64,000 nucleotides of DNA. Origin: Bacteroidota bacterium. GTDB taxonomy: Bacteria; Bacteroidota; Bacteroidia; Chitinophagales; Saprospiraceae. The translations under genes and the position numbers were made by a program. Shown here piece after piece: positions 1 to 7,744 of this stretch. The notes under the pieces are model-generated. The model worked only from the letters and a program-made list of their open reading frames with translations. It did not search any database and was not told the DNA's origin. Each line of letters begins with the position of its first letter. Positions within the stretch are counted from its first letter, which is position 1. The stretch lies in NCBI GenBank assembly GCA_024642665.1, contig JAHEAR010000012.1, forward strand, positions 1 through 64,000, given 5' to 3'.

Positions 1-33
1 TTTTTTTTTCAAGCAGAAGACGGCATACGAGAT
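1..33 (+). other. Illumina P7 flow-cell oligo (adapter contamination)
   Basis: Nine T residues are followed at 10-33 by the 24-base P7 adapter, beginning CAAGCAGAAGACGGCATACG and ending GAT. A T-tract plus P7 is the layout of the grafted flow-cell oligo. This is technical sequence. On the minus strand the adapter happens to read I-S-Y-A-V in the frame of the adjoining permease gene, so the exact genome/adapter boundary could lie a few bases inside 33. Confidence 0.97.
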
Positions 34-888
34 AATGGAGCGTACAGAGCTTCCTGTTTCAAATTGAGCGTTAGCCGTTTGAATATCTTCTGCATCCACT
101 TTAAAGACGGTGCTGTATTCCAGGCCGACAGCTGGAGCAGCGTTTATGTCTTTTAGTTTGATCTGTATATCCGTGATATAATTTTTTGATTCTCCCAGCA
201 GTTTTTGGGCTGTTTCAACAGAAGTATAACTCTGCACTTTGTCGATTTCAGCCATGCCTGACTGATAAAACCCTACGACCTTAAGTGGAAATTGTTCGCC
301 GCCTAAGGTAGTCACCTGGATAATGTCACCGATATGGGCCAGCATTTTATCGGCAGCTCCTTTTCCAAGAATAATAGAATTGGGAATCAGCTTTAAATCC
401 AGATAAGATCCCTTTGTAACGTATATACCAAAATCAAAAAGATCATTTTCTGCCTCTACCGCAATACCATTAATCACTCCGGTGACATCAATATTACCAA
501 TCGTATAGAAAGCCTGTGTCGTGATTTTAGGGGCAAGACCGGAAACCCGTGAATCTTTTTTAAGTGCAGAAACCATTGCTTCCACATTATAAAGTTTCAA
601 TTGGCTGCCACTAGGTTTGACGGATCGAACCATATGGTAATGGTCTTTCAGTTTTGCGTCCAACATAATGGGTTGTATGGCTGAAGGCTTGATCTCATTA
701 TAGAGTTTTATATGTGGAGTCCGGTTAAGCACCAGACCATCCAATAAATCATTGAGACCATTCATGAAACCCAGCAGGGCAATAAACATGGCGATACTAA
801 AAGTGACGCCAACAGCAGCAATGAGGGTTTGTTTCCATCTGGCGATCAGGAGTGCAAGAGCAATATCCGGGAGTAATAGATATTTCAT
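34..888 (-). CDS. ABC transporter permease, FtsX/MacB type (C-terminus missing)
   Basis: Inner-membrane permease of the FtsX/MacB-like family, expected to work with the adjoining adaptor to export a substrate across the envelope. The start ATG at 888 gives residues beginning MKYLLLPDIALALL, followed by a membrane segment at about residues 20-40 (IAAVGVTFSIAMFIALLGF) and a large periplasmic domain. The reading frame stays open to base 34, where the contig ends in adapter; the sequence there (ETGSSVRSI) is just before where the second membrane segment normally begins, so roughly the last quarter is missing. The ATG overlaps the adaptor stop as ATGA, showing translational coupling. The cognate ATPase presumably lies beyond the contig end. 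Confidence 0.85.
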
Positions 889-1967
889 TTTCGCGGTCGT
901 TTCAGAATTTCTTTTTCTCCTATTCCTTCCAGTACTTCTGTTTTAATATAATCCCGGGCACCTGTTTTTATAAGAATGGTATCACCTGTTTGTGAGATAA
1001 CAAATTCATCATCCAGCACATAAGCAAGAGGAATGGTCAATACATCTTTTTTGACCTGAAGAATAATATTAGCTTCAAGGGTGAGATTGGGGTACAGCGA
1101 TGGTGGCTGCTTTGTAAATTGAGCTTCTACTTTAGCAGTTTTCGTTCGCTCATTTAACAAGGGGAATACCTTTGTGATTACTGCATCAAAAACCTCTCCC
1201 CGATAACTATCCATTGTCACCTTTACTTCCTGGCCGGGCCGGATCAATACGATATCATATTCGTCAACTTGTAATTCTAATATAAAAGTGGAGTCGTCTC
1301 CGATGACCGCCAGTGGTGTTTGGGGACTGACAATCTCACCCTCTTCTTTAAGAAGGGAATAGACTTTCCCCTGAATCGCACTGGTGATGGTGAAATCATT
1401 TTCATTTTGTTTTGTGATCTGCAAGTTTTTTTGTGCTTGTTTGGAAATAATATCCAAACGTCGTTTTTCATCATTAAACCTGAATTGTGCTGAATGGTAG
1501 GTAGTCCTGGAATTCTCAAAGTTGAGCTCAGCAGTTTCATACGCCACCCTGGAACCTATGTTTTGTTCCCATAACTCCTTTTGCCGCATATAGAGTAAGG
1601 AATCATTGTTCAAGCGGCTTTTAGCAAAGGCAATACCCAGAGCAAGTTCATCTAAACGGCCCTGATTAGTTTTGATATCGGCGAGTTCGGCCGCCAACTG
1701 TGCATTTTCTCTTGAAAGCGTAGATGCTTCATTGGCGATGCTAAATAACAAGGCACCTCTTTCTACGTTATCCCCTTCATCAACATAGGTTTTATAGAGC
1801 AGACCGTTGACTGTGGCATAAACTTCATATTGATTTTTACTGCGCAGAATCCCGGAGGCATAAACTGACTCTGTAATATTTTCCCGGGTGACAGCCGTAG
1901 TCTCCACTGGTTCGCTACAAGCTGAAATGCATAGCAGGAAAACGAGCATTTTTGTTATGAAATTCAT
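885..1967 (-). CDS. HlyD/MacA-type periplasmic adaptor lipoprotein
   Basis: Membrane-fusion (adaptor) protein linking an inner-membrane exporter to the outer membrane. From ATG 1967 it has a hydrophobic signal and lipobox ISAC (Cys17), so it is probably lipid-anchored. A split biotinyl/lipoyl hairpin fold is visible: an N-terminal strand region around VYATVNGLLYKTYVDEGDNV, a long helical coiled-coil region, then SAIQGKVYSLLKEEGEIVSP and a beta-barrel domain. An upstream in-frame TTG (1976) would add three residues; I prefer ATG 1967. It is first in a two-gene operon with the FtsX permease and divergent from the TetR gene across about 100 bp, so both are probably controlled together. Confidence 0.85.
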   Translation of the reverse strand: MNFITKMLVFLLCISACSEPVETTAVTRENITESVYASGILRSKNQYEVYATVNGLLYKTYVDEGDNVERGALLFSIANEASTLSRENAQLAAELADIKTNQGRLDELALGIAFAKSRLNNDSLLYMRQKELWEQNIGSRVAYETAELNFENSRTTYHSAQFRFNDEKRRLDIISKQAQKNLQITKQNENDFTITSAIQGKVYSLLKEEGEIVSPQTPLAVIGDDSTFILELQVDEYDIVLIRPGQEVKVTMDSYRGEVFDAVITKVFPLLNERTKTAKVEAQFTKQPPSLYPNLTLEANIILQVKKDVLTIPLAYVLDDEFVISQTGDTILIKTGARDYIKTEVLEGIGEKEILKRPRK

Positions 1968-2017
1968 ACTCCACAAGATAAGGGTTATGAATTTAGAATG
2001 AATATGTACAAGATTGA

Positions 2018-2049
2018 TTTGGTTTTTTCAAACTATGCCATTAACTTTG
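2018..2049 (+). promoter_or_regulatory. Bacteroidota-type promoter for the tetR gene
   Basis: TTTG (2018-2021), 20 bases, then TAACTTTG (2042-2049) matches the Bacteroidota primary sigma consensus (-33 TTTG, -7 TAnnTTTG) in both boxes and spacing. The -7 box overlaps the first half of the inverted repeat at 2047-2066, so a bound repressor would block transcription. Confidence 0.75.
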
Positions 2050-2066
2050 ACTGACCGATTAGTCAA
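2047..2066. promoter_or_regulatory. Putative TetR operator (inverted repeat)
   Basis: Perfect 6-bp half-sites TTGACT and AGTCAA separated by 8 bp, ending 5 bp before the tetR ATG and overlapping the -7 box. Position and symmetry fit autorepression by the TetR protein, and the site also lies in the divergent spacer to the adaptor gene. Binding is inferred, not shown. Confidence 0.7.
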
Positions 2067-2071
2067 TAAAC

Positions 2072-2671
2072 ATGGCACCAAGATCAGAGGAACAATTTTT
2101 AGCCCTAAGGACAAAGAGCCGCGATAAGATTATTGAAGCGGCAACAGAATTGTTTGCTCGACAGGGATTTCATGGCACCAGCATCAGCGCCATTGCCGGG
2201 GCTGCAGAAATTTCCAAAGGATTGATGTACAATTACTTTGACAGTAAAGAGAGCCTGTTGGATGCGATTTTGCTGAAGGGATTTGAGGACATTGATGGGC
2301 CCATGAATCAGCTGCAGACTCTAAAGGATCCTTTTGAAAGACTTTATGCCATTGTAGAAGGCACATTTGCCATGGTAAAGAACAAACAAGATAGAATCCA
2401 CTGGCAGTTTATGATGTCTATTATGACACAACACGAAGTCATGAAACGAATGCACACCGTTGTTGCAAAATACATGAAAGGGTACATGGCCACCTTTGAA
2501 TCTATTTTCAAAGACATGGCGGTCGCCAATCCCAAAATGGAGAGCTATCGATTAGCCGCCATGCTCGATGGTATTCTGTTGCACTACTTAAGTGTTTTTG
2601 GAAAATCCTATCCGCTTGAAGAAATGAAAAATGAAATACTTAATCAATATGAAGCATACAGGAAAACCTGA
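2072..2671 (+). CDS. TetR/AcrR family transcriptional regulator
   Basis: One-domain repressor of 199 aa, the usual TetR size. The N-terminal TetR helix-turn-helix is clear at about residues 19-65 (IIEAATELFARQGFHGTSIS, then AEISKGLMYNYFDSKESLL). The rest is a helical ligand-binding and dimerisation domain. It sits between two envelope-transport units and has an operator-like palindrome over its own promoter, so it probably represses itself, the downstream LolA/ABC/OMP operon with which it overlaps, and perhaps the divergent adaptor gene. The ligand is unknown. Confidence 0.92.
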   Translation: MAPRSEEQFLALRTKSRDKIIEAATELFARQGFHGTSISAIAGAAEISKGLMYNYFDSKESLLDAILLKGFEDIDGPMNQLQTLKDPFERLYAIVEGTFAMVKNKQDRIHWQFMMSIMTQHEVMKRMHTVVAKYMKGYMATFESIFKDMAVANPKMESYRLAAMLDGILLHYLSVFGKSYPLEEMKNEILNQYEAYRKT

Positions 2672-3419
2672 TATAGTGAGATTTGTTTTTCTCTTATTCA
2701 TTCTTTTAGTGAGTACTTTCAGCTTATCCGGACAGACTGCTATTGACATCGTCAGGGCCGCCGATCAAAAACTAAAAGGACTTTCTTCAGAGGCCAGTAT
2801 GACTATTCGTATCGTACGCCCCACATGGCAACGGGACATTTCATTAAAGACATGGAGTAAAGGAGATCAATATGCTTTGATTTTAGTAACGGCACCAGCT
2901 AAAGACGAGGGCATGGTTTCTCTGAAACGCGATAAAGAAGTCTGGAATTGGATGCCCTCGATCGAACGAACTATTAAGCTTCCTCCCTCGATGATGACGC
3001 AATCCTGGATGGGAACAGATTTTACAAACGATGATCTCGTCAAGCAATCTTCCATTGTTACAGATTATATTCATACGCTGGCGAAGGATACGATGATAGA
3101 AAATTTTACCTGCCATAAAATTATCATGACGGCCAAACCGGAAGCAGCAGTCGTGTGGGGTAAAATTATTATTTACATTTCCCAAAAAGAATATATGCAG
3201 CTCCGGGCGGAGTATTATGATGAAGATGGCTATCTGATCAATGTCATGAGTGGTTCGAAAGTGAAAAACCTCGGAGGAAAAATGTTGCCTTCCGAAATGG
3301 AAATGATTCCTGTTGATAAGCCGGGGCAGAAAACGGTTCTGATTTATAACAGCCTTGTCTTTGATATCCCTATCGAAGAAAGTTTTTTTACTGTGCAGCA
3401 TATGAAAACGGTTCGATAG
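2649..3419 (+). CDS. LolA-like outer membrane lipoprotein-sorting protein
   Basis: Periplasmic carrier of the LolA/COG2834 type, expected to shuttle a lipid or lipophilic molecule from the inner-membrane complex to the outer membrane. From ATG 2649 there is a signal peptide (FVFLLFILLVSTFSLSGQ) followed by a predominantly beta domain with the family-type stretch KDEGMVSLKRDKEVWNWMPS and a MTQSWMGTDFTNDDLV segment. It overlaps the 3' end of tetR; an earlier in-frame ATG (2631) would lie deeper in that overlap and place charged residues before the signal. Its stop is immediately followed by the first permease ATG (3420), so it belongs to the transporter operon. Confidence 0.85.
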   Translation: MKHTGKPDIVRFVFLLFILLVSTFSLSGQTAIDIVRAADQKLKGLSSEASMTIRIVRPTWQRDISLKTWSKGDQYALILVTAPAKDEGMVSLKRDKEVWNWMPSIERTIKLPPSMMTQSWMGTDFTNDDLVKQSSIVTDYIHTLAKDTMIENFTCHKIIMTAKPEAAVVWGKIIIYISQKEYMQLRAEYYDEDGYLINVMSGSKVKNLGGKMLPSEMEMIPVDKPGQKTVLIYNSLVFDIPIEESFFTVQHMKTVR

Positions 3420-4637
3420 ATGCAACTGATATTTGCCTGGCGAAATATTTGGCGTAATAAACGAAGAACGCTGATCACGGCAGCATCAATTTTTACGGCG
3501 GTGATTCTGGCCTTACTTATGCGATCTGCTCAACTGGGGGCGTATCAACGCATGATTGATAATGTGGTTAGTTTTTATACCGGTCATATCCAGCTGCATG
3601 CGGTGGGGTATTGGGACGAAAAGACATTGGATAACAGCTTTATCCCTAATGATTCAGTAATTGCTATCCTCAATGGGCATAAAGACATTCGTTCCTGGGT
3701 GCCAAGACTGGAGTCTTTTGCGCTCACGTCATCTCAGGATCTTTCGGAAGGGAGTTTGGTAGTGGGAATAGATCCGGAAGCTGAAGATCGGCTCACCCGG
3801 TTGGGTCAAAAGGTAGTTTCAGGAAAATATCTGGGGACCAATGACAATGGAATATTAGTATCTGAGGGATTAGCTCAAAAAATGCAAGTTGGAGCCGGTG
3901 ATACACTTGTTCTTCTTGGACAAGGATATCATGGGGTTACAGCCGCAGGAAAATATATGGTCAAAGGACTTGTGCATTTTTCTGCTCCCAGCCTGAATGA
4001 CGGTATGATTTATTTGACCATAGCAGAAGCGCAGACTTTGTATGGCACCGGTAATCGACTGACGAGCATTGCCATTTCTGTAAAACCAAATGTTGATGCA
4101 ACACTCGTTGCCAATGAACTTCGAAACGAAGCAGGTACGCTGCCCTTTGAGTTTTTTGACTGGAAGCAAATGCTCCCGGAGATGGTACAGCTCATTGAGG
4201 TGGATAGTGCCGGGGGTGTTATTGTGATTTCAATCCTGTATATGATTATTGCCTTTGGTATTTTTGGTACGGTGCTGATGATGCTGGCTGAACGACAGCA
4301 TGAATTTGGCATATTGGTATCCATTGGGATGAAAAAAGTAAAGCTGGCGAGTGTGGTCATGCTGGAAATACTGATGATAGCCTTTACAGGCACTATTGCA
4401 GGTATTGTCGCAGGTATCCCGATCATCGCCTACTTTCATTATAACCCTATTCAAATTACCGGAGAGATGGCTAAAGCCTATGAAAGCTTTGGAATTGAAG
4501 CTGTATTTCCTTTTTCAAACGATATAAGCATTTTTTTTACGCAGGCAACCATTGTCTTTGTGTTGAGCCTGCTATTGTCCATTTATCCATGGTTCAGAAT
4601 TTTGAATCTTAAAGCCATTGAGGCATTAAAAAGTTAG
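3420..4637 (+). CDS. ABC transporter permease, LolC/LolE-like (first of two)
   Basis: 405-aa FtsX-family permease beginning MQLIFAWRNIWRNKRRTL, the AWRNxWRNKxR N-terminus typical of LolC/E-like proteins in Bacteroidota. One N-terminal membrane segment, a periplasmic MacB-PCD-type domain (about residues 45-260), then three C-terminal membrane segments starting VIVISILYMIIAFGIFGTV and the coupling motif ERQHEFGILVSIGM. Together with the next gene and the LolD-like ATPase it would form a heterodimeric type VII ABC exporter that hands substrate to the LolA-like carrier encoded directly upstream. No gap to the upstream gene and 3 bp to the next, so strongly coupled. Confidence 0.9.
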   Translation: MQLIFAWRNIWRNKRRTLITAASIFTAVILALLMRSAQLGAYQRMIDNVVSFYTGHIQLHAVGYWDEKTLDNSFIPNDSVIAILNGHKDIRSWVPRLESFALTSSQDLSEGSLVVGIDPEAEDRLTRLGQKVVSGKYLGTNDNGILVSEGLAQKMQVGAGDTLVLLGQGYHGVTAAGKYMVKGLVHFSAPSLNDGMIYLTIAEAQTLYGTGNRLTSIAISVKPNVDATLVANELRNEAGTLPFEFFDWKQMLPEMVQLIEVDSAGGVIVISILYMIIAFGIFGTVLMMLAERQHEFGILVSIGMKKVKLASVVMLEILMIAFTGTIAGIVAGIPIIAYFHYNPIQITGEMAKAYESFGIEAVFPFSNDISIFFTQATIVFVLSLLLSIYPWFRILNLKAIEALKS

Positions 4638-4640
4638 CAA

Positions 4641-5858
4641 ATGCTTACACGTATAGCATGGCGGAATGTTTGGCGAAATAAAGTGCGCAGTCTTATCCTT
4701 TTAAGTTCTATCGCCATGGGTATCTGGGCAGGTATATTTATTTTGTCTTTTTCCTGGGGCATGAGTATACAGTATGTCAATATGGCTATTCATGGACAGG
4801 TATCGCACATTCAATTGCATCATCCGGAATTTAAAACAGATAAAAAGATTATCTATTCAATTGCTGATGCGTCCGACATCGTACATGCCATACAAAAAAT
4901 GGAAGGGGTGAAGGCGGCATCTGGAAGAGTCATCGTCAGTGGAATGATTTCTTCACCGACCTCCGGAGCAGCTGCAAGGGTTTCAGGGGTTGATCCTGAA
5001 CAGGAAAATAGTGTTACCGGAATGGCGGACAACGTAATTGAAGGTGATTTTTTTAAGTCCGATAAGCGAAATCAAATTCTTATAGGTGAGAAACTAGCAA
5101 ACAAGCTCAAAGTAAAACTAAACCACAAGGTCGTGTTGACCCTGCAGGATATTAATGGTAACATTACGGCTGGTGCTTTTCGCATCACAGGCATCTATCA
5201 AACAAGGAATAGTACACTGGATGAACTAAATGTGTATGTGAGGACATCTGAACTATCCTCACTATTGGATCTTGAGGTTGGAAATCTACAGGAGATTGCT
5301 GTTTTGTTAAACGATAATTCTTATCTCACCACCGCGTATGATTCCATTCGGTCTGAGTTTCCTGAATTGCTGGTAGAAGACTGGAAGACCTTATCTCCGG
5401 AATTGCGATTGGTTATTGATTCGTTTAGCCAAACGATGTATCTCTTTATTTCAATTATTCTTTTGGCTCTCACTTTTGGCATTATTAACACGATGCTGAT
5501 GGCTGTACTGGAGCGCTATCATGAGTTGGGTATTTTAATGGCCATTGGGATGAATAAATTTTCTGTATTTATGATGATTATGCTGGAGACACTTTATCTG
5601 GCAATCATTGGGGGCATTTGCGGTTTGCTTTTGGCATATGTGACAATTCATTTGCTCGGGAACACAGGAATAGATTTATCTGCTTTTGCAGCAGGGTTAT
5701 CTTCTTATGGAATGGATACGATGGTTTATCCCGCACTCCCGGACAATCAATACCTTAAAATATTTGGAATGATTTTTATTGCCGCTATTTTGTCTGCGAT
5801 ATACCCCGCTTACAAAGCGTTAAAACTAAATCCTGTTCAAGCAATTCGTAAAATATAG
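4641..5858 (+). CDS. ABC transporter permease, LolC/LolE-like (second of two)
   Basis: 405 aa, same length and topology as the preceding permease: N-terminus MLTRIAWRNVWRNKVRSL, one membrane segment, periplasmic domain, three C-terminal membrane segments with the coupling helix ERYHELGILMAIGMNK. The two permeases are diverged paralogues, as LolC and LolE are, which suggests a heterodimer with distinct carrier-binding and substrate-entry subunits (inference). The spacing to the ATPase gene is 4 bp. Confidence 0.9.
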   Translation: MLTRIAWRNVWRNKVRSLILLSSIAMGIWAGIFILSFSWGMSIQYVNMAIHGQVSHIQLHHPEFKTDKKIIYSIADASDIVHAIQKMEGVKAASGRVIVSGMISSPTSGAAARVSGVDPEQENSVTGMADNVIEGDFFKSDKRNQILIGEKLANKLKVKLNHKVVLTLQDINGNITAGAFRITGIYQTRNSTLDELNVYVRTSELSSLLDLEVGNLQEIAVLLNDNSYLTTAYDSIRSEFPELLVEDWKTLSPELRLVIDSFSQTMYLFISIILLALTFGIINTMLMAVLERYHELGILMAIGMNKFSVFMMIMLETLYLAIIGGICGLLLAYVTIHLLGNTGIDLSAFAAGLSSYGMDTMVYPALPDNQYLKIFGMIFIAAILSAIYPAYKALKLNPVQAIRKI

Positions 5859-5862
5859 CATC

Positions 5863-6558
5863 ATGGCCGTACTGGAAATATCCAATTTAAAGAAAACATA
5901 TAACGAGGAAAGTGATTTTCCTGTTCGTGCTGTTAACGATGTCGACCTCATTATTGAGAAAGGAGAATTTACAGCGATTGTAGGGCCTTCCGGATCAGGC
6001 AAATCTACCTTGCTGAATATCATGGGCGGATTGGATCATCCTACTGCCGGAAAAGTAATTATCGATGGAAATGATATTTCTGAACTTCGCGAAAATCAAT
6101 TGATTGATTTTCGGCTTCACCATATTGGTTTCGTTTTTCAGTCCTACAATCTTATTCCGGTGCTGACCGCCCGGGAAAATGTGTCTTTCGTCATGGTGCT
6201 GCAAAAAACGCCTAAACAGGAAAGAGATCATCGCGCCTCTTCATTACTGACAGAAGTAGGTCTGGGCGATCGAATGGATAGCCGGCCTTCAGAATTGTCA
6301 GGAGGTCAGCAACAGCGTGTTGCCATAGCACGAGCACTTGCCTCAAGACCTGATTTCATCCTCGCGGACGAACCCACTGCTAATCTTGATTCCAAATCAG
6401 CCGGCCATCTGATGGACATTATGTTGAAATTAAATCGCGAGGAGCACATGACTTTTGTTTTTTCAACACATGATTCGAGAGTGATAGAGCGTGCACGTCG
6501 TGTGATTACGCTGGTCGATGGAAAAATAGTTTCTGATATACAACAAAATGCATCCTAA
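5863..6558 (+). CDS. ABC transporter ATP-binding protein, LolD/MacB type
   Basis: 231-aa cytoplasmic ATPase. Walker A GPSGSGKST (41-49), Q-loop Gln93 (VFQSYNL), signature LSGGQQQR (145-152), Walker B FILADE (165-170) followed by PTANLDS, and an H-loop in FSTHD are all intact. Length and motif spacing fit the LolD/MacB branch that powers FtsX-type permeases by mechanotransmission. It is the only ATPase in this operon and probably serves the two upstream permeases. The stop overlaps the start of the following outer-membrane gene by 11 bp. Confidence 0.95.
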   Translation: MAVLEISNLKKTYNEESDFPVRAVNDVDLIIEKGEFTAIVGPSGSGKSTLLNIMGGLDHPTAGKVIIDGNDISELRENQLIDFRLHHIGFVFQSYNLIPVLTARENVSFVMVLQKTPKQERDHRASSLLTEVGLGDRMDSRPSELSGGQQQRVAIARALASRPDFILADEPTANLDSKSAGHLMDIMLKLNREEHMTFVFSTHDSRVIERARRVITLVDGKIVSDIQQNAS

Positions 6559-7744
6559 TTTTGAACTGCAGATAAAGGGTTTTCTTGGGCTATACTTGTT
6601 TTTTGTTAGTCTGGCCTTACCCGCACAAGAAGTTTCAGGGCAGAAAAAGTTAGGCGATGTACTGACGTTTAAAGGTTATATTAAAGATCTTCAAGTCGTA
6701 ACTATCGCTAATCCGTTGCCTGTTACTACGTATAATTTTGTCCATAATCGATTAAATCTGAAATATTATCCATCCGGTTCCATTACGGCAGCACTCGAGG
6801 TTAGAAATAGAGTTTATTTTGGTTCAGGGATTAATCAGTTTCCTGATTTTGCTGATTTGGTTTCTGTGGATAATGGTTATTTTGATTTTTCTGCTTTGCT
6901 CATCAAACAGAACGCCATGCTGGCTGTCGCACAGATCGATCGCTTTTGGGTGGATTGGTATAAAGGTGATTGGCAGGTGCGGGTGGGTCGGCAGCGGATC
7001 AACTGGGGCAAAACCCTGGTTTGGAATCCAAACGATCTTTTTAATTCCTTCAATTTTACGGACTTTGATTATGAAGAACAACCGGGAAGTGATGCTCTTA
7101 AAGTGACCTATTATCCGACTGGAATGTCTTCCATCGAAGCGGCCATAAAACCAGGGAAAAAAAGTAATGAAACGGTAGCTGCAGGTTTGTGGAGATTTAA
7201 TCACAATGGCTATGACCTTCAGGTATTAGCTGGCCTGTATAAAACCGATATGGCGCTAGGAATGGGCTGGGCTGGAAACATTAAGAACGCCGGTTTCAAA
7301 GGGGAAGCAACCTGGTTTCAGCCTATTAAGTCTTTGACGGATCAGAAAAGCGTATTGAGTGCAACTATCACGGTTGATTACTCGTTTGAGAAACCCATTT
7401 ATATTCAGGGAGGTGTATTGTATAATCAGCACCATGAAACGGATTCATCCGGGCTTGGTTCGCTAGACTTTATTCGTGGCCAGGAACTCTCTCCAAAAAA
7501 CTTAATGCCTTCTGACTGGTCCTTTATAGGCCAGATCAATGGAAATATTACGCCACTTTTTCAAGCGAACTTAGCTGTAATCCAAACAGTATCTCCTGCT
7601 TTTTCTTTTATCATGCCCTCTCTGAACTACTCGCTTTTTGACAATTTGGATGTCACTTTATTGAATCAAAGTGTGGTCCTGTTTACAAGTGTTAAACCCA
7701 ATAATGTCCATACCCTTTATTTGCGTTTAAAATGGAGTTTTTAG
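6548..7744 (+). CDS. Outer-membrane beta-barrel protein of the LolA/ABC operon
   Basis: 398 aa with a signal peptide (LYLFFVSLALPAQ) and alternating-residue strands throughout, ending in the aromatic KWSF typical of a barrel C-terminus. The segment RVGRQRINWGKTLVWNPNDL resembles the GRQ-x-x-WG feature of DUF1302-like barrels, which in Proteobacteria co-occur with LolA-like and MMPL proteins; that similarity is from memory and tentative. It overlaps the ATPase gene by 11 bp, so it is probably the outer-membrane receiver of whatever the LolA-like carrier transports. No specific function can be named. Confidence 0.75.
   Translation: MHPNFELQIKGFLGLYLFFVSLALPAQEVSGQKKLGDVLTFKGYIKDLQVVTIANPLPVTTYNFVHNRLNLKYYPSGSITAALEVRNRVYFGSGINQFPDFADLVSVDNGYFDFSALLIKQNAMLAVAQIDRFWVDWYKGDWQVRVGRQRINWGKTLVWNPNDLFNSFNFTDFDYEEQPGSDALKVTYYPTGMSSIEAAIKPGKKSNETVAAGLWRFNHNGYDLQVLAGLYKTDMALGMGWAGNIKNAGFKGEATWFQPIKSLTDQKSVLSATITVDYSFEKPIYIQGGVLYNQHHETDSSGLGSLDFIRGQELSPKNLMPSDWSFIGQINGNITPLFQANLAVIQTVSPAFSFIMPSLNYSLFDNLDVTLLNQSVVLFTSVKPNNVHTLYLRLKWSF

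What the first reader, a model, noticed from the sequence alone, without database searches (positions are those of the whole stretch)
2018..7744. TetR-controlled LolA-LolCE-LolD-barrel export line
A complete route is encoded in one tight operon: ATPase, two permeases, periplasmic LolA-like carrier and a dedicated outer-membrane barrel, behind a TetR gene with operator over its -7 box. Canonical Lol uses LolB at the outer membrane; here a DUF1302-like barrel takes that place. It parallels LolA/MMPL/DUF1302 sets of Proteobacteria but with an ABC engine, suggesting specialised lipid, pigment or hydrophobic compound export.
Basis: partly seen in the sequence, partly recalled or inferred. Interest (0 to 1): 0.62.

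Follow-up and report, generated by a model that had tools for sequence, protein, structure and literature searches.

The report
Conserved LolA-like shuttle with dedicated porin
A bacterial gene set appears to build its own delivery line for a greasy molecule: an ATP-driven extractor in the inner membrane, a soluble carrier, and a private pore in the outer membrane; the cargo is unknown, but many other bacteria keep the same parts together.

Summary
Window 2072-7744 is one tight operon: TetR, LolA_like carrier (PF17131), two FtsX/LolCE-type permeases, LolD-type ATPase, and an outer-membrane barrel (weak DUF1302). A TetR-type palindrome overlaps the -7 box; 24 of 38 loci, the window included, have it before TetR, 20 in the same register. 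The set is widely conserved: of 295 genomes of the window's class, 57 have a close carrier, and 51 of these have the barrel; of the other 238, one has it. The five transport genes also occur in Vibrio campbellii, Persicobacter and a Coatesbacteria MAG. A carrier tree splits by engine (ABC versus MMPL). Predicted folds: permease 1 nearest LolE/LolC (Z 30); barrel of the OprD/Occ, chitoporin and AlgE porin kind (Z 22-24). It works like a Lol line feeding a channel, but is probably not the cell's Lol system: the carrier is of another family, and better-scoring LolCE-like permeases and another LolA-like gene lie elsewhere. 'Barrel in place of LolB' is doubtful, because the fold is a channel. Cargo unknown: hopanoids unlikely, carotenoids no strict partner; an isoprenoid gene (IPP isomerase) lies beside the set in 6 of 66 loci. 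A new variant of a known kind.

The parts
2042..2049 (+). Bacteroidota-type -7 box TAACTTTG
   Evidence: sequence; TAnnTTTG 5 nt before the palindrome in 20 of 24 loci
2047..2066 (.). TetR operator palindrome TTGACTGACCGATTAGTCAA, sharing TTG with the -7 box
   Evidence: only site in the genome with 0-1 mismatch to the consensus
2072..2671 (+). TetR-family regulator (199 aa), presumably repressor
   Evidence: TetR_N 63.7 bits; TetR hit in 34 of 45 related loci
2649..3419 (+). LolA_like periplasmic carrier (PF17131), signal peptide by eye, no lipobox; ATG 2649 (2631 also possible)
   Evidence: PDB kin 9tp6, 3buu, 4z48, 3bk5
3420..4637 (+). FtsX-type permease 1, conserved GQGYHGxxAAG loop at the place of the LolC/LolE loop that in LolC forms the Hook
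   Evidence: model pLDDT 88, best Z 30.2 to LolE
4641..5858 (+). FtsX-type permease 2
   Evidence: (lolCE 147.5 bits)
5863..6558 (+). LolD/MacB-type ATPase; Walker A GPSGSGKST, signature LSGGQQQR, Walker B FILADEPT present
6548..7744 (+). outer-membrane beta-barrel, OprD/Occ/AlgE-type fold, DUF1302 core, C-terminal Phe

Best explanation
A dedicated, TetR-repressed line that moves one kind of hydrophobic molecule from the inner membrane to or through the outer membrane. Step 1 (inferred from homology and model): two different FtsX/LolCE-type permeases with a dimer of the ATPase take the cargo from the outer leaflet of the inner membrane. Step 2 (inferred): the soluble LolA-fold carrier takes it and crosses the periplasm; no adaptor tube is encoded in the operon. 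Step 3 (weakest): the carrier docks on its own porin-fold barrel, which releases the cargo outward or into the outer membrane. Control (site shown, binding inferred): TetR sits on a palindrome that overlaps the -7 box and leaves when a ligand, perhaps the cargo, binds. Shown: the genes, their tight packing, conservation as a set, the conserved operator motif, the fold predictions. Not shown: cargo, direction, any contact between the parts.
For: Fold and family of each part. Carrier-barrel co-occurrence at E below 1e-50 and 1e-80: 51 of 57 carrier genomes against 1 of 238 others; 44 of 57 with the barrel downstream on the same strand within 12 kb. In two genomes of one family the permeases, ATPase and barrel stay together while the carrier is on another contig without them (L081/L080, L082/L083). 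Same order in Vibrio campbellii and Persicobacter and a Coatesbacteria MAG. The two permeases, sorted by best BLAST hit, each give a well-conserved alignment. Operator motif in 24 of 38 loci. No lipobox pattern in 35 of 35 carriers; C-terminal aromatic residue in 31 of 32 barrels. Cousin sets respond to hydrophobic compounds: MMPL+LolA-like fusion TOL_3187 up 42-fold and its neighbour porin TOL_3188 only on n-C28 alkane (PMC6304351, passages); ameB (LolA superfamily, DUF1329) needed for growth on monoterpenes, beside DUF1302 and RND genes (PMC6394551, passage). Weak lead: IPP isomerase beside the set in 6 of 66 loci.
Against: No cargo evidence. The barrel fold is a porin kind known for polar substrates (OprD/Occ, AlgE; recalled), which does not suggest grease. 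6 of 57 carrier genomes have no strong barrel hit. The permease loop that forms the Hook in LolC is about 5-6 residues shorter than in LolC, LolE or LolF, so carrier loading may differ. Direction could be reversed. 13 loci have three permease genes and one has four, which a simple two-permease pump does not explain.
Confidence: 0.56

Rival explanations
1. A second, specialised lipoprotein-sorting line: the pump and carrier move a subset of lipoproteins, and the barrel helps to insert or surface-expose them.
For: Closest relatives of the permease 1 model are LolE/LolC; several LolA and LolB exist in Flavobacterium johnsoniae (PMC11885536, passages), and some lipoproteins still reach the outer membrane without them (its abstract, recalled). 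Borrelia authors propose lipoproteins as one possible cargo for a similar set (PMC13078400). The equivalog cut-offs that the permeases miss are missed by every permease of this genome.
Against: No lipoprotein gene family was recognised as recurring beside the set, but not every recurring family was annotated; best fold matches of the barrel are porins; the carrier is outside the LolA families; better LolCE-like candidates and another LolA-like gene lie elsewhere. TetR control fits poorly with housekeeping sorting.
Confidence: 0.17
2. A porphyrin or metal-complex efflux line: the ATPase and permeases work like the heme exporter HrtBA, with a TetR regulator as HrtR does.
For: HrtBA permease is the third kind of match to the permease 1 model, after LolCDE and a pneumococcal ABC (Z 22.6). 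A cousin set of Porphyromonas gingivalis (TetR, MMPL, lipoprotein-sorting protein, ABC; PG1175-PG1181) is among the strongest responders to iron or heme supply (PMC10434189, PMC10470040 under other locus tags, PMC13227078; passages).
Against: LolE/LolC are clearly closer (Z up to 30.2). The P. gingivalis genes rise when heme or iron is scarce, the opposite of efflux, and have an MMPL engine. HrtR as a TetR-family heme sensor is recalled, not tested.
Confidence: 0.07
3. A retrograde or uptake line: the barrel takes up a hydrophobic nutrient and the carrier brings it inward.
For: Barrel is of the substrate-uptake porin kind (OprD/Occ, chitoporin); cousin sets are linked to growth on alkane or monoterpene.
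Against: FtsX-type ABC systems with known transport direction (LolCDE, MacB, HrtBA) work outward (recalled); I recognised no catabolic gene family recurring beside the set.
Confidence: 0.1
4. Chance neighbours: unrelated transport genes under one TetR promoter.
For: Carrier and barrel lie on different contigs in 7 of 57 genomes, and solo carriers exist.
Against: 51 of 57 against 1 of 238 co-occurrence; same order across phyla; gene overlaps.
Confidence: 0.01

Closest known systems
Lol lipoprotein pathway (LolCDE-LolA-LolB)
   Same: Type VII ABC engine with two permeases and a LolD-like ATPase; soluble carrier of the LolA superfamily; permease 1 model best matches LolE/LolC (best Z 30.2, rmsd 4.3, 371 residues).
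   Different: Carrier is PF17131, not a canonical LolA family; loop at the Hook place shorter; porin-fold barrel and TetR added; no LolB-like gene in the operon. Equivalog scores are missed, but by every permease of this genome.
MMPL/RND - LolA-like - barrel sets (AmeABCD of Castellaniella; TOL_3187/3188; P. gingivalis PG1178-PG1181)
   Same: Same carrier superfamily, often with a DUF1302 barrel; MMPL sets in this class carry the other branch of carriers.
   Different: MMPL/RND engine instead of ABC; carriers form a separate branch (97/88). Whether the P. gingivalis set has a barrel I did not test (a 'hypothetical protein' in the papers).
Borrelia BBJ23-BBJ29 cluster (PMC13078400)
   Same: MacB-type ABC, LolA-like protein and outer-membrane barrel in one cluster, proposed to carry a non-polar ligand.
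   Different: Omp85 barrel, homodimeric permease, two TPR proteins; no TetR among its seven genes.
LolA2/LolB2 of the Flavobacterium flexirubin locus (PMC11885536)
   Same: LolA-fold carrier proposed for a dedicated hydrophobic cargo in Bacteroidota.
   Different: LolA/LolB pair, tied to a biosynthetic locus; no barrel or own ABC named in the passages I saw.
MacAB-TolC
   Same: FtsX/MacB-type permease and ATPase; export across two membranes.
   Different: Needs an adaptor (MacA) and TolC tube; none in this operon. Permease 1 model clearly closer to LolE (Z 30 against 18).

Membership tests
Lol system | LolC/LolE permeases at equivalog level | tested here: inconclusive
   TIGR02212 96.8 and 147.5 bits, cut-off 362.45; but no permease of this genome reaches it, best 208.2 elsewhere
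Lol system | LolD at equivalog level | tested here: not met
   TIGR02211 239.1 bits, cut-off 307.75; no control with the genome's other ATPases was run
Lol system | LolA of family PF03548 or PF16584 | tested here: not met
   carrier matches only PF17131 at E up to 0.1
Lol system | LolC Hook loop for LolA docking | tested here: inconclusive
   loop about 5-6 residues shorter than in LolC, LolE and LolF in sequence alignments; short turn in the permease 1 model; no complex modelled
Lol system | LolB-type lipoprotein acceptor in the unit | tested here: not met
   none in the operon; no lipobox pattern in 35 carriers and 32 barrels; the rest of the genome was not searched for LolB
Lol system | transports lipoproteins | not testable with these tools
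   needs experiment
PF17131 LolA_like | family profile above cut-off | tested here: met
   173.1 bits, cut-off 30
PF06980 DUF1302 | family profile above cut-off | tested here: inconclusive
   28.6 bits, cut-off 23.2, but over 70 residues only; 14 of 32 relatives match at E up to 0.01; the Vibrio barrel has no Pfam match
OprD/Occ-AlgE type porin fold | same barrel fold | tested here: met
   model pLDDT 85; Z 24.1 to 22.0 over about 290-320 residues to Occ/OprD, chitoporin, MOMP and AlgE; identity 5-12%
MacAB-TolC / tripartite ABC efflux | periplasmic adaptor and TolC in the unit | tested here: not met
   none in the operon; the divergent adaptor gene 885-1976 has no hit in the 45 related loci at 1e-4
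MMPL-LolA-DUF1302 set | MMPL engine | tested here: not met
   ABC engine instead
Borrelia BBJ23-29 type | Omp85 barrel | tested here: inconclusive
   best matches are porins; Omp85 not among the 50 rows shown

The most novel reading that the evidence does not exclude
A separate trans-envelope export architecture: a type VII ABC pump that feeds a free-swimming LolA-fold shuttle, which in turn docks on its own OprD/AlgE-type channel, so that a hydrophobic compound (perhaps an isoprenoid) leaves the cell without a continuous tube; the same carrier-barrel module has been mated with two different engines (ABC and MMPL) in evolution.
Probability: 0.35. Interest if true: 0.72.

Novelty: new variant of a known kind. 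Interest (0 to 1): 0.5.

Why it matters
About one in five sampled genomes of the window's class (57 of 295) carry the carrier, mostly with the rest of the set, and the set crosses phyla, yet my searches found no description of the ABC plus LolA_like plus porin-fold form. If the reading is right, the Lol shuttle principle serves cargoes other than lipoproteins, and there are handles for finding the cargo: a soluble carrier to purify with its ligand, and a TetR operator to use as reporter.

Tried and rejected
Carotenoids as cargo: the CrtI family is too broad (281 of 295 genomes ring, 198 over the cut-off), and 19 of 57 carrier genomes, some of them incomplete, have no hit better than 1e-50, so no strict partner. 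Hopanoids: cyclase family at E<=0.001 in 8 of 295 genomes (5 over the cut-off), not in this one. A wider TetR regulon: the only other place with up to 2 mismatches lies inside a reading frame. A substrate hint from the Vibrio neighbours: they are a GGDEF protein and a chemoreceptor. Isoprenoids through the IPP isomerase (NF002995 165 bits over its cut-off, one member scanned): it lies next to and divergent from TetR in L010, L034, L036 and L037 and one or more genes away in L029 and L035, but the same loci share other neighbours (rpsO and pnp by my reading), so it may be clade synteny; kept as a lead. Omp85, LptD or FadL folds for the barrel: none among the 50 rows shown; this absence is no proof. 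Free search for palindromes before TetR: most single loci not above shuffles, and in the window the best palindrome was another one (p 0.27); only the shared motif stands out. PDB profile search with the barrel: nothing significant (best E 0.22). No canonical LolA chain appeared with the carrier profile at E up to 10. The MFP/FtsX unit on the other strand as a further part: not conserved.

Limits of the counts. In one search my gene caller lost loci where an antisense frame overlapped a gene: L014 and L017, which one search shows with two permeases each, are not among its 37, and in L022 and L071 it hid the ATPase. In one search the label 'solo' is wrong for L110, which has the set; the tree used 35 of the 45 named-genome carriers plus those recovered from L071-L112. 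In one search the thresholds were chosen after seeing the lists; below them, one barrel fragment (G051) also occurs without a carrier match. Genomes are unnamed; that the class is Bacteroidia is my inference from the named relatives.

Papers: passages only for PMC6394551, PMC10434189, PMC10470040, PMC11885536, PMC13103446, PMC13227078, PMC6304351; outline, abstract and passages for PMC13078400; others seen in search listings only. 'No description found' rests on the searches in an open-access library.
Full report
What is there. The window is bases 1-64000 of contig C34 of a 3.7 Mb draft genome. Bases 2072-7744 hold six genes on the + strand with overlaps or gaps of 0-4 nt. Families: TetR_N; PF17131 LolA_like; two FtsX/MacB_PCD permeases; ABC ATPase; DUF1302 by a short match. 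NCBIfam puts the permeases and ATPase nearest lolCE and LolD, below their equivalog cut-offs. The ATPase keeps its Walker and signature motifs.

Regulation. TTGACTGACCGATTAGTCAA (2047-2066) overlaps TAACTTTG (2042-2049). In 38 loci with a TetR gene beside the carrier, the window included, 24 have TGACn10GTCA within -200..+100 of TetR; 11 of the 24 read TTGACCGACCGTTCAGTCA; 20 of the 24 have TAnnTTTG exactly 5 nt upstream. Background in the same loci is 0.026 sites per 300 bp. The loci are related, so the binomial value (4e-29) overstates independence. A free palindrome search gave weak results for most single loci and did not pick this site in the window. The TetR recognition region SKGLxYNYF is shared, and the ligand domain varies more. 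The genome has no second good site, so the regulator looks local.

Conservation. The carrier as query found 45 loci in named genomes: mainly Bacteroidota, also MAGs labelled Chlorobiota, Gemmatimonadetes and Coatesbacteria. Of these 45, 34 have a TetR hit, 36 an ATPase in the set, and 35 the barrel. In 9 of the 10 without barrel the held DNA ends inside the permease/ATPase part or within 400 nt of it; L030 has room but no hit. L026 and L031 have the barrel upstream of TetR. Among 37 loci, the window included, where my gene caller recovered carrier and downstream barrel, 22 have two permease genes, 14 three and 1 four; L005 counts as three only because one permease is split, so 13 are real threes (L014 and L017 were lost by the caller).

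Sample of one class. In 295 genomes of the window's class (one per species, unnamed; I take it to be Bacteroidia), 63 match the carrier profile at E<=0.001 and 54 the barrel profile. With carriers below 1e-50 (57 genomes) and barrels below 1e-80 (52 genomes), thresholds set after seeing the lists, 51 genomes have both, 6 only the carrier, 1 only the barrel (74% complete). In 44 of 57 the barrel lies downstream on the same strand within 12 kb; in 7 it is on another contig. In two genomes of one family the permeases, ATPase and barrel stay together while the carrier is on another contig without them. Some carriers stand alone (L077, L078). Of two other genomes of the window's family, one (G142) has carrier, permeases and barrel; six sampled genomes of another family of its order have none.

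Other phyla and other engines. tblastn against plasmid records found 8 with a match; the two at about 50% identity, a 2 Mb Vibrio campbellii replicon and a Persicobacter replicon, hold the five transport genes in the same order, the Persicobacter one with TetR. Of the 18 weaker carrier matches (1e-50 to 1e-20) of the class sample, 11 lie beside an MMPL gene, 3 in a reverse-order ABC set (barrel-ABC-FtsX-FtsX-carrier; L084, L087, L091), 2 beside an MMPL-type barrel only, and 2 without recognised partner on short or cut contigs. In a tree of 71 carriers, 13 rows with the MMPL-linked ones and 58 rows with the ABC-linked ones fall on two sides of a branch with support 97/88, and the window type is separated from the reverse type at 100/98; the root is unknown and some long branches are unsure.

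Neighbours. Over 66 loci the gene families recurring most beside the set are a DUF308 protein (8 loci) and an IPP isomerase (6 loci: L010, L029, L034, L035, L036, L037; one member identified). The isomerase gene is next to and divergent from TetR in four of them, 150-290 nt away. These loci also share other neighbours, so this may be synteny of one clade; it is the only hint, a weak one, to an isoprenoid cargo. Families in 3-5 loci were looked at by eye and mostly not annotated by a tool.

Structure. Barrel model: pLDDT 85 (32 sequences), 19 strand segments by DSSP, with most of the best conserved stretch (RINWGxxLVWNPNDxFN...PGSD) outside the strands. Best VIA-align matches: Occ/OprD porins, chitoporin, MOMP and AlgE, Z 24.1 to 22.0. 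Permease 1 model: pLDDT 88; LolCDE permeases Z 30.2 to 21.2, pneumococcal non-canonical ABC 24.6, HrtBA 22.6, MacB 18. The loop at the LolC Hook site is shorter by about 5-6 residues in both permeases, against LolC, LolE and LolF alike, and in permease 1 it carries a conserved GQGYHGxxAAG: a candidate carrier-docking site, by inference. The carrier was not modelled; its solved kin are 9tp6, 3buu, 4z48 and 3bk5. It has no lipobox pattern in 35 of 35 rows; barrels end in an aromatic residue in 31 of 32. The carriers are well conserved (mean column identity 57%) with an Arg-Pro pair (R59 nearly invariant, P60 invariant); LolA of E. coli has a studied Arg-Pro motif (PMC13103446), but equivalence was not tested.

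Is it the cell's Lol system? Probably not. Elsewhere the genome has a 218-aa LolA_2-like protein (24.1 bits, below its cut-off of 26.8) beside a gene that I read as a DNA translocase, and LolCE-like permeases with better scores (208 and 154 bits). None of them reaches the LolCE cut-off either, so that cut-off cannot decide. This is most likely an extra, conditional line.

Mechanism. The best reading is extraction by the ABC pump, carriage by the LolA-fold protein and delivery to a private porin-fold barrel, repressed by TetR. Direction and cargo are inferred. A channel fold rather than an acceptor fold suggests passage across the outer membrane (as AlgE does for alginate) more than insertion into it, so 'in place of LolB' should be dropped or tested. 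Literature on cousins points to hydrophobic cargo (PMC6304351, PMC6394551) and, for a P. gingivalis MMPL set, to strong induction under heme or iron shortage (PMC10434189, PMC10470040). A Borrelia cluster with ABC, LolA-like and Omp85 parts was proposed in 2026 to carry a non-polar ligand (PMC13078400). The idea is thus in print for another barrel type; this TetR plus porin-fold form I did not find described (searches listed under Tried and rejected).

Verdict. Real, conserved and well defined as a module; a new variant of a known kind, with unknown cargo.

Noticed in passing
window 10-33: After nine T's the contig starts with the exact Illumina P7 adapter (adapter sequence recalled); an assembly artefact.
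   Followed up: yes
window 1-888 (-) and G000:C64:2-511 (+), L056: An FtsX gene is cut at the window's start; C64 begins with what looks like its C-terminal part (lolCE positions 24-246 and 275-410), so the two contigs probably adjoin. An ABC ATPase gene and, by my reading only, a nos (nitrous oxide reductase) cluster follow on C64.
   Followed up: partly
window 885-1976 (-): Membrane-fusion-protein gene divergent from the tetR promoter, 70-80 bp from the operator; could be co-controlled, but has no hit in the 45 related loci.
   Followed up: partly
L010, L029, L034, L035, L036, L037: IPP isomerase family beside the set, next to and divergent from TetR in four of the six loci; isoprenoid lead or clade synteny.
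   Followed up: partly
L007, L012, L015, L024, L027, L029, L032, L036, L037, L046 and others; L042 with four: Three or four FtsX permease genes with one ATPase in the set; perhaps alternative permease pairs.
   Followed up: partly
L084, L087, L091: Second ABC type with reversed order: barrel-ABC-FtsX-FtsX-carrier, in L084 after a TetR-like gene; the two of its barrels scanned (L084, L087) have no Pfam match.
   Followed up: partly
L111:8932-14179: The five transport genes in Vibrio campbellii, tree neighbour Persicobacter (97/83): transfer between phyla likely.
   Followed up: partly
L010, L024, L029, L034, L036, L037, L040, L046: A DUF308 (HdeD-like) membrane protein gene recurs downstream of the barrel in 8 loci.
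   Followed up: no
L038, L042, L044: Some permeases of about 470-480 aa, in L042 and L044 with an insertion of some 60 residues in the periplasmic domain.
   Followed up: no
L077, L078, L079: Solo carrier genes, in genomes with no strong barrel hit.
   Followed up: no
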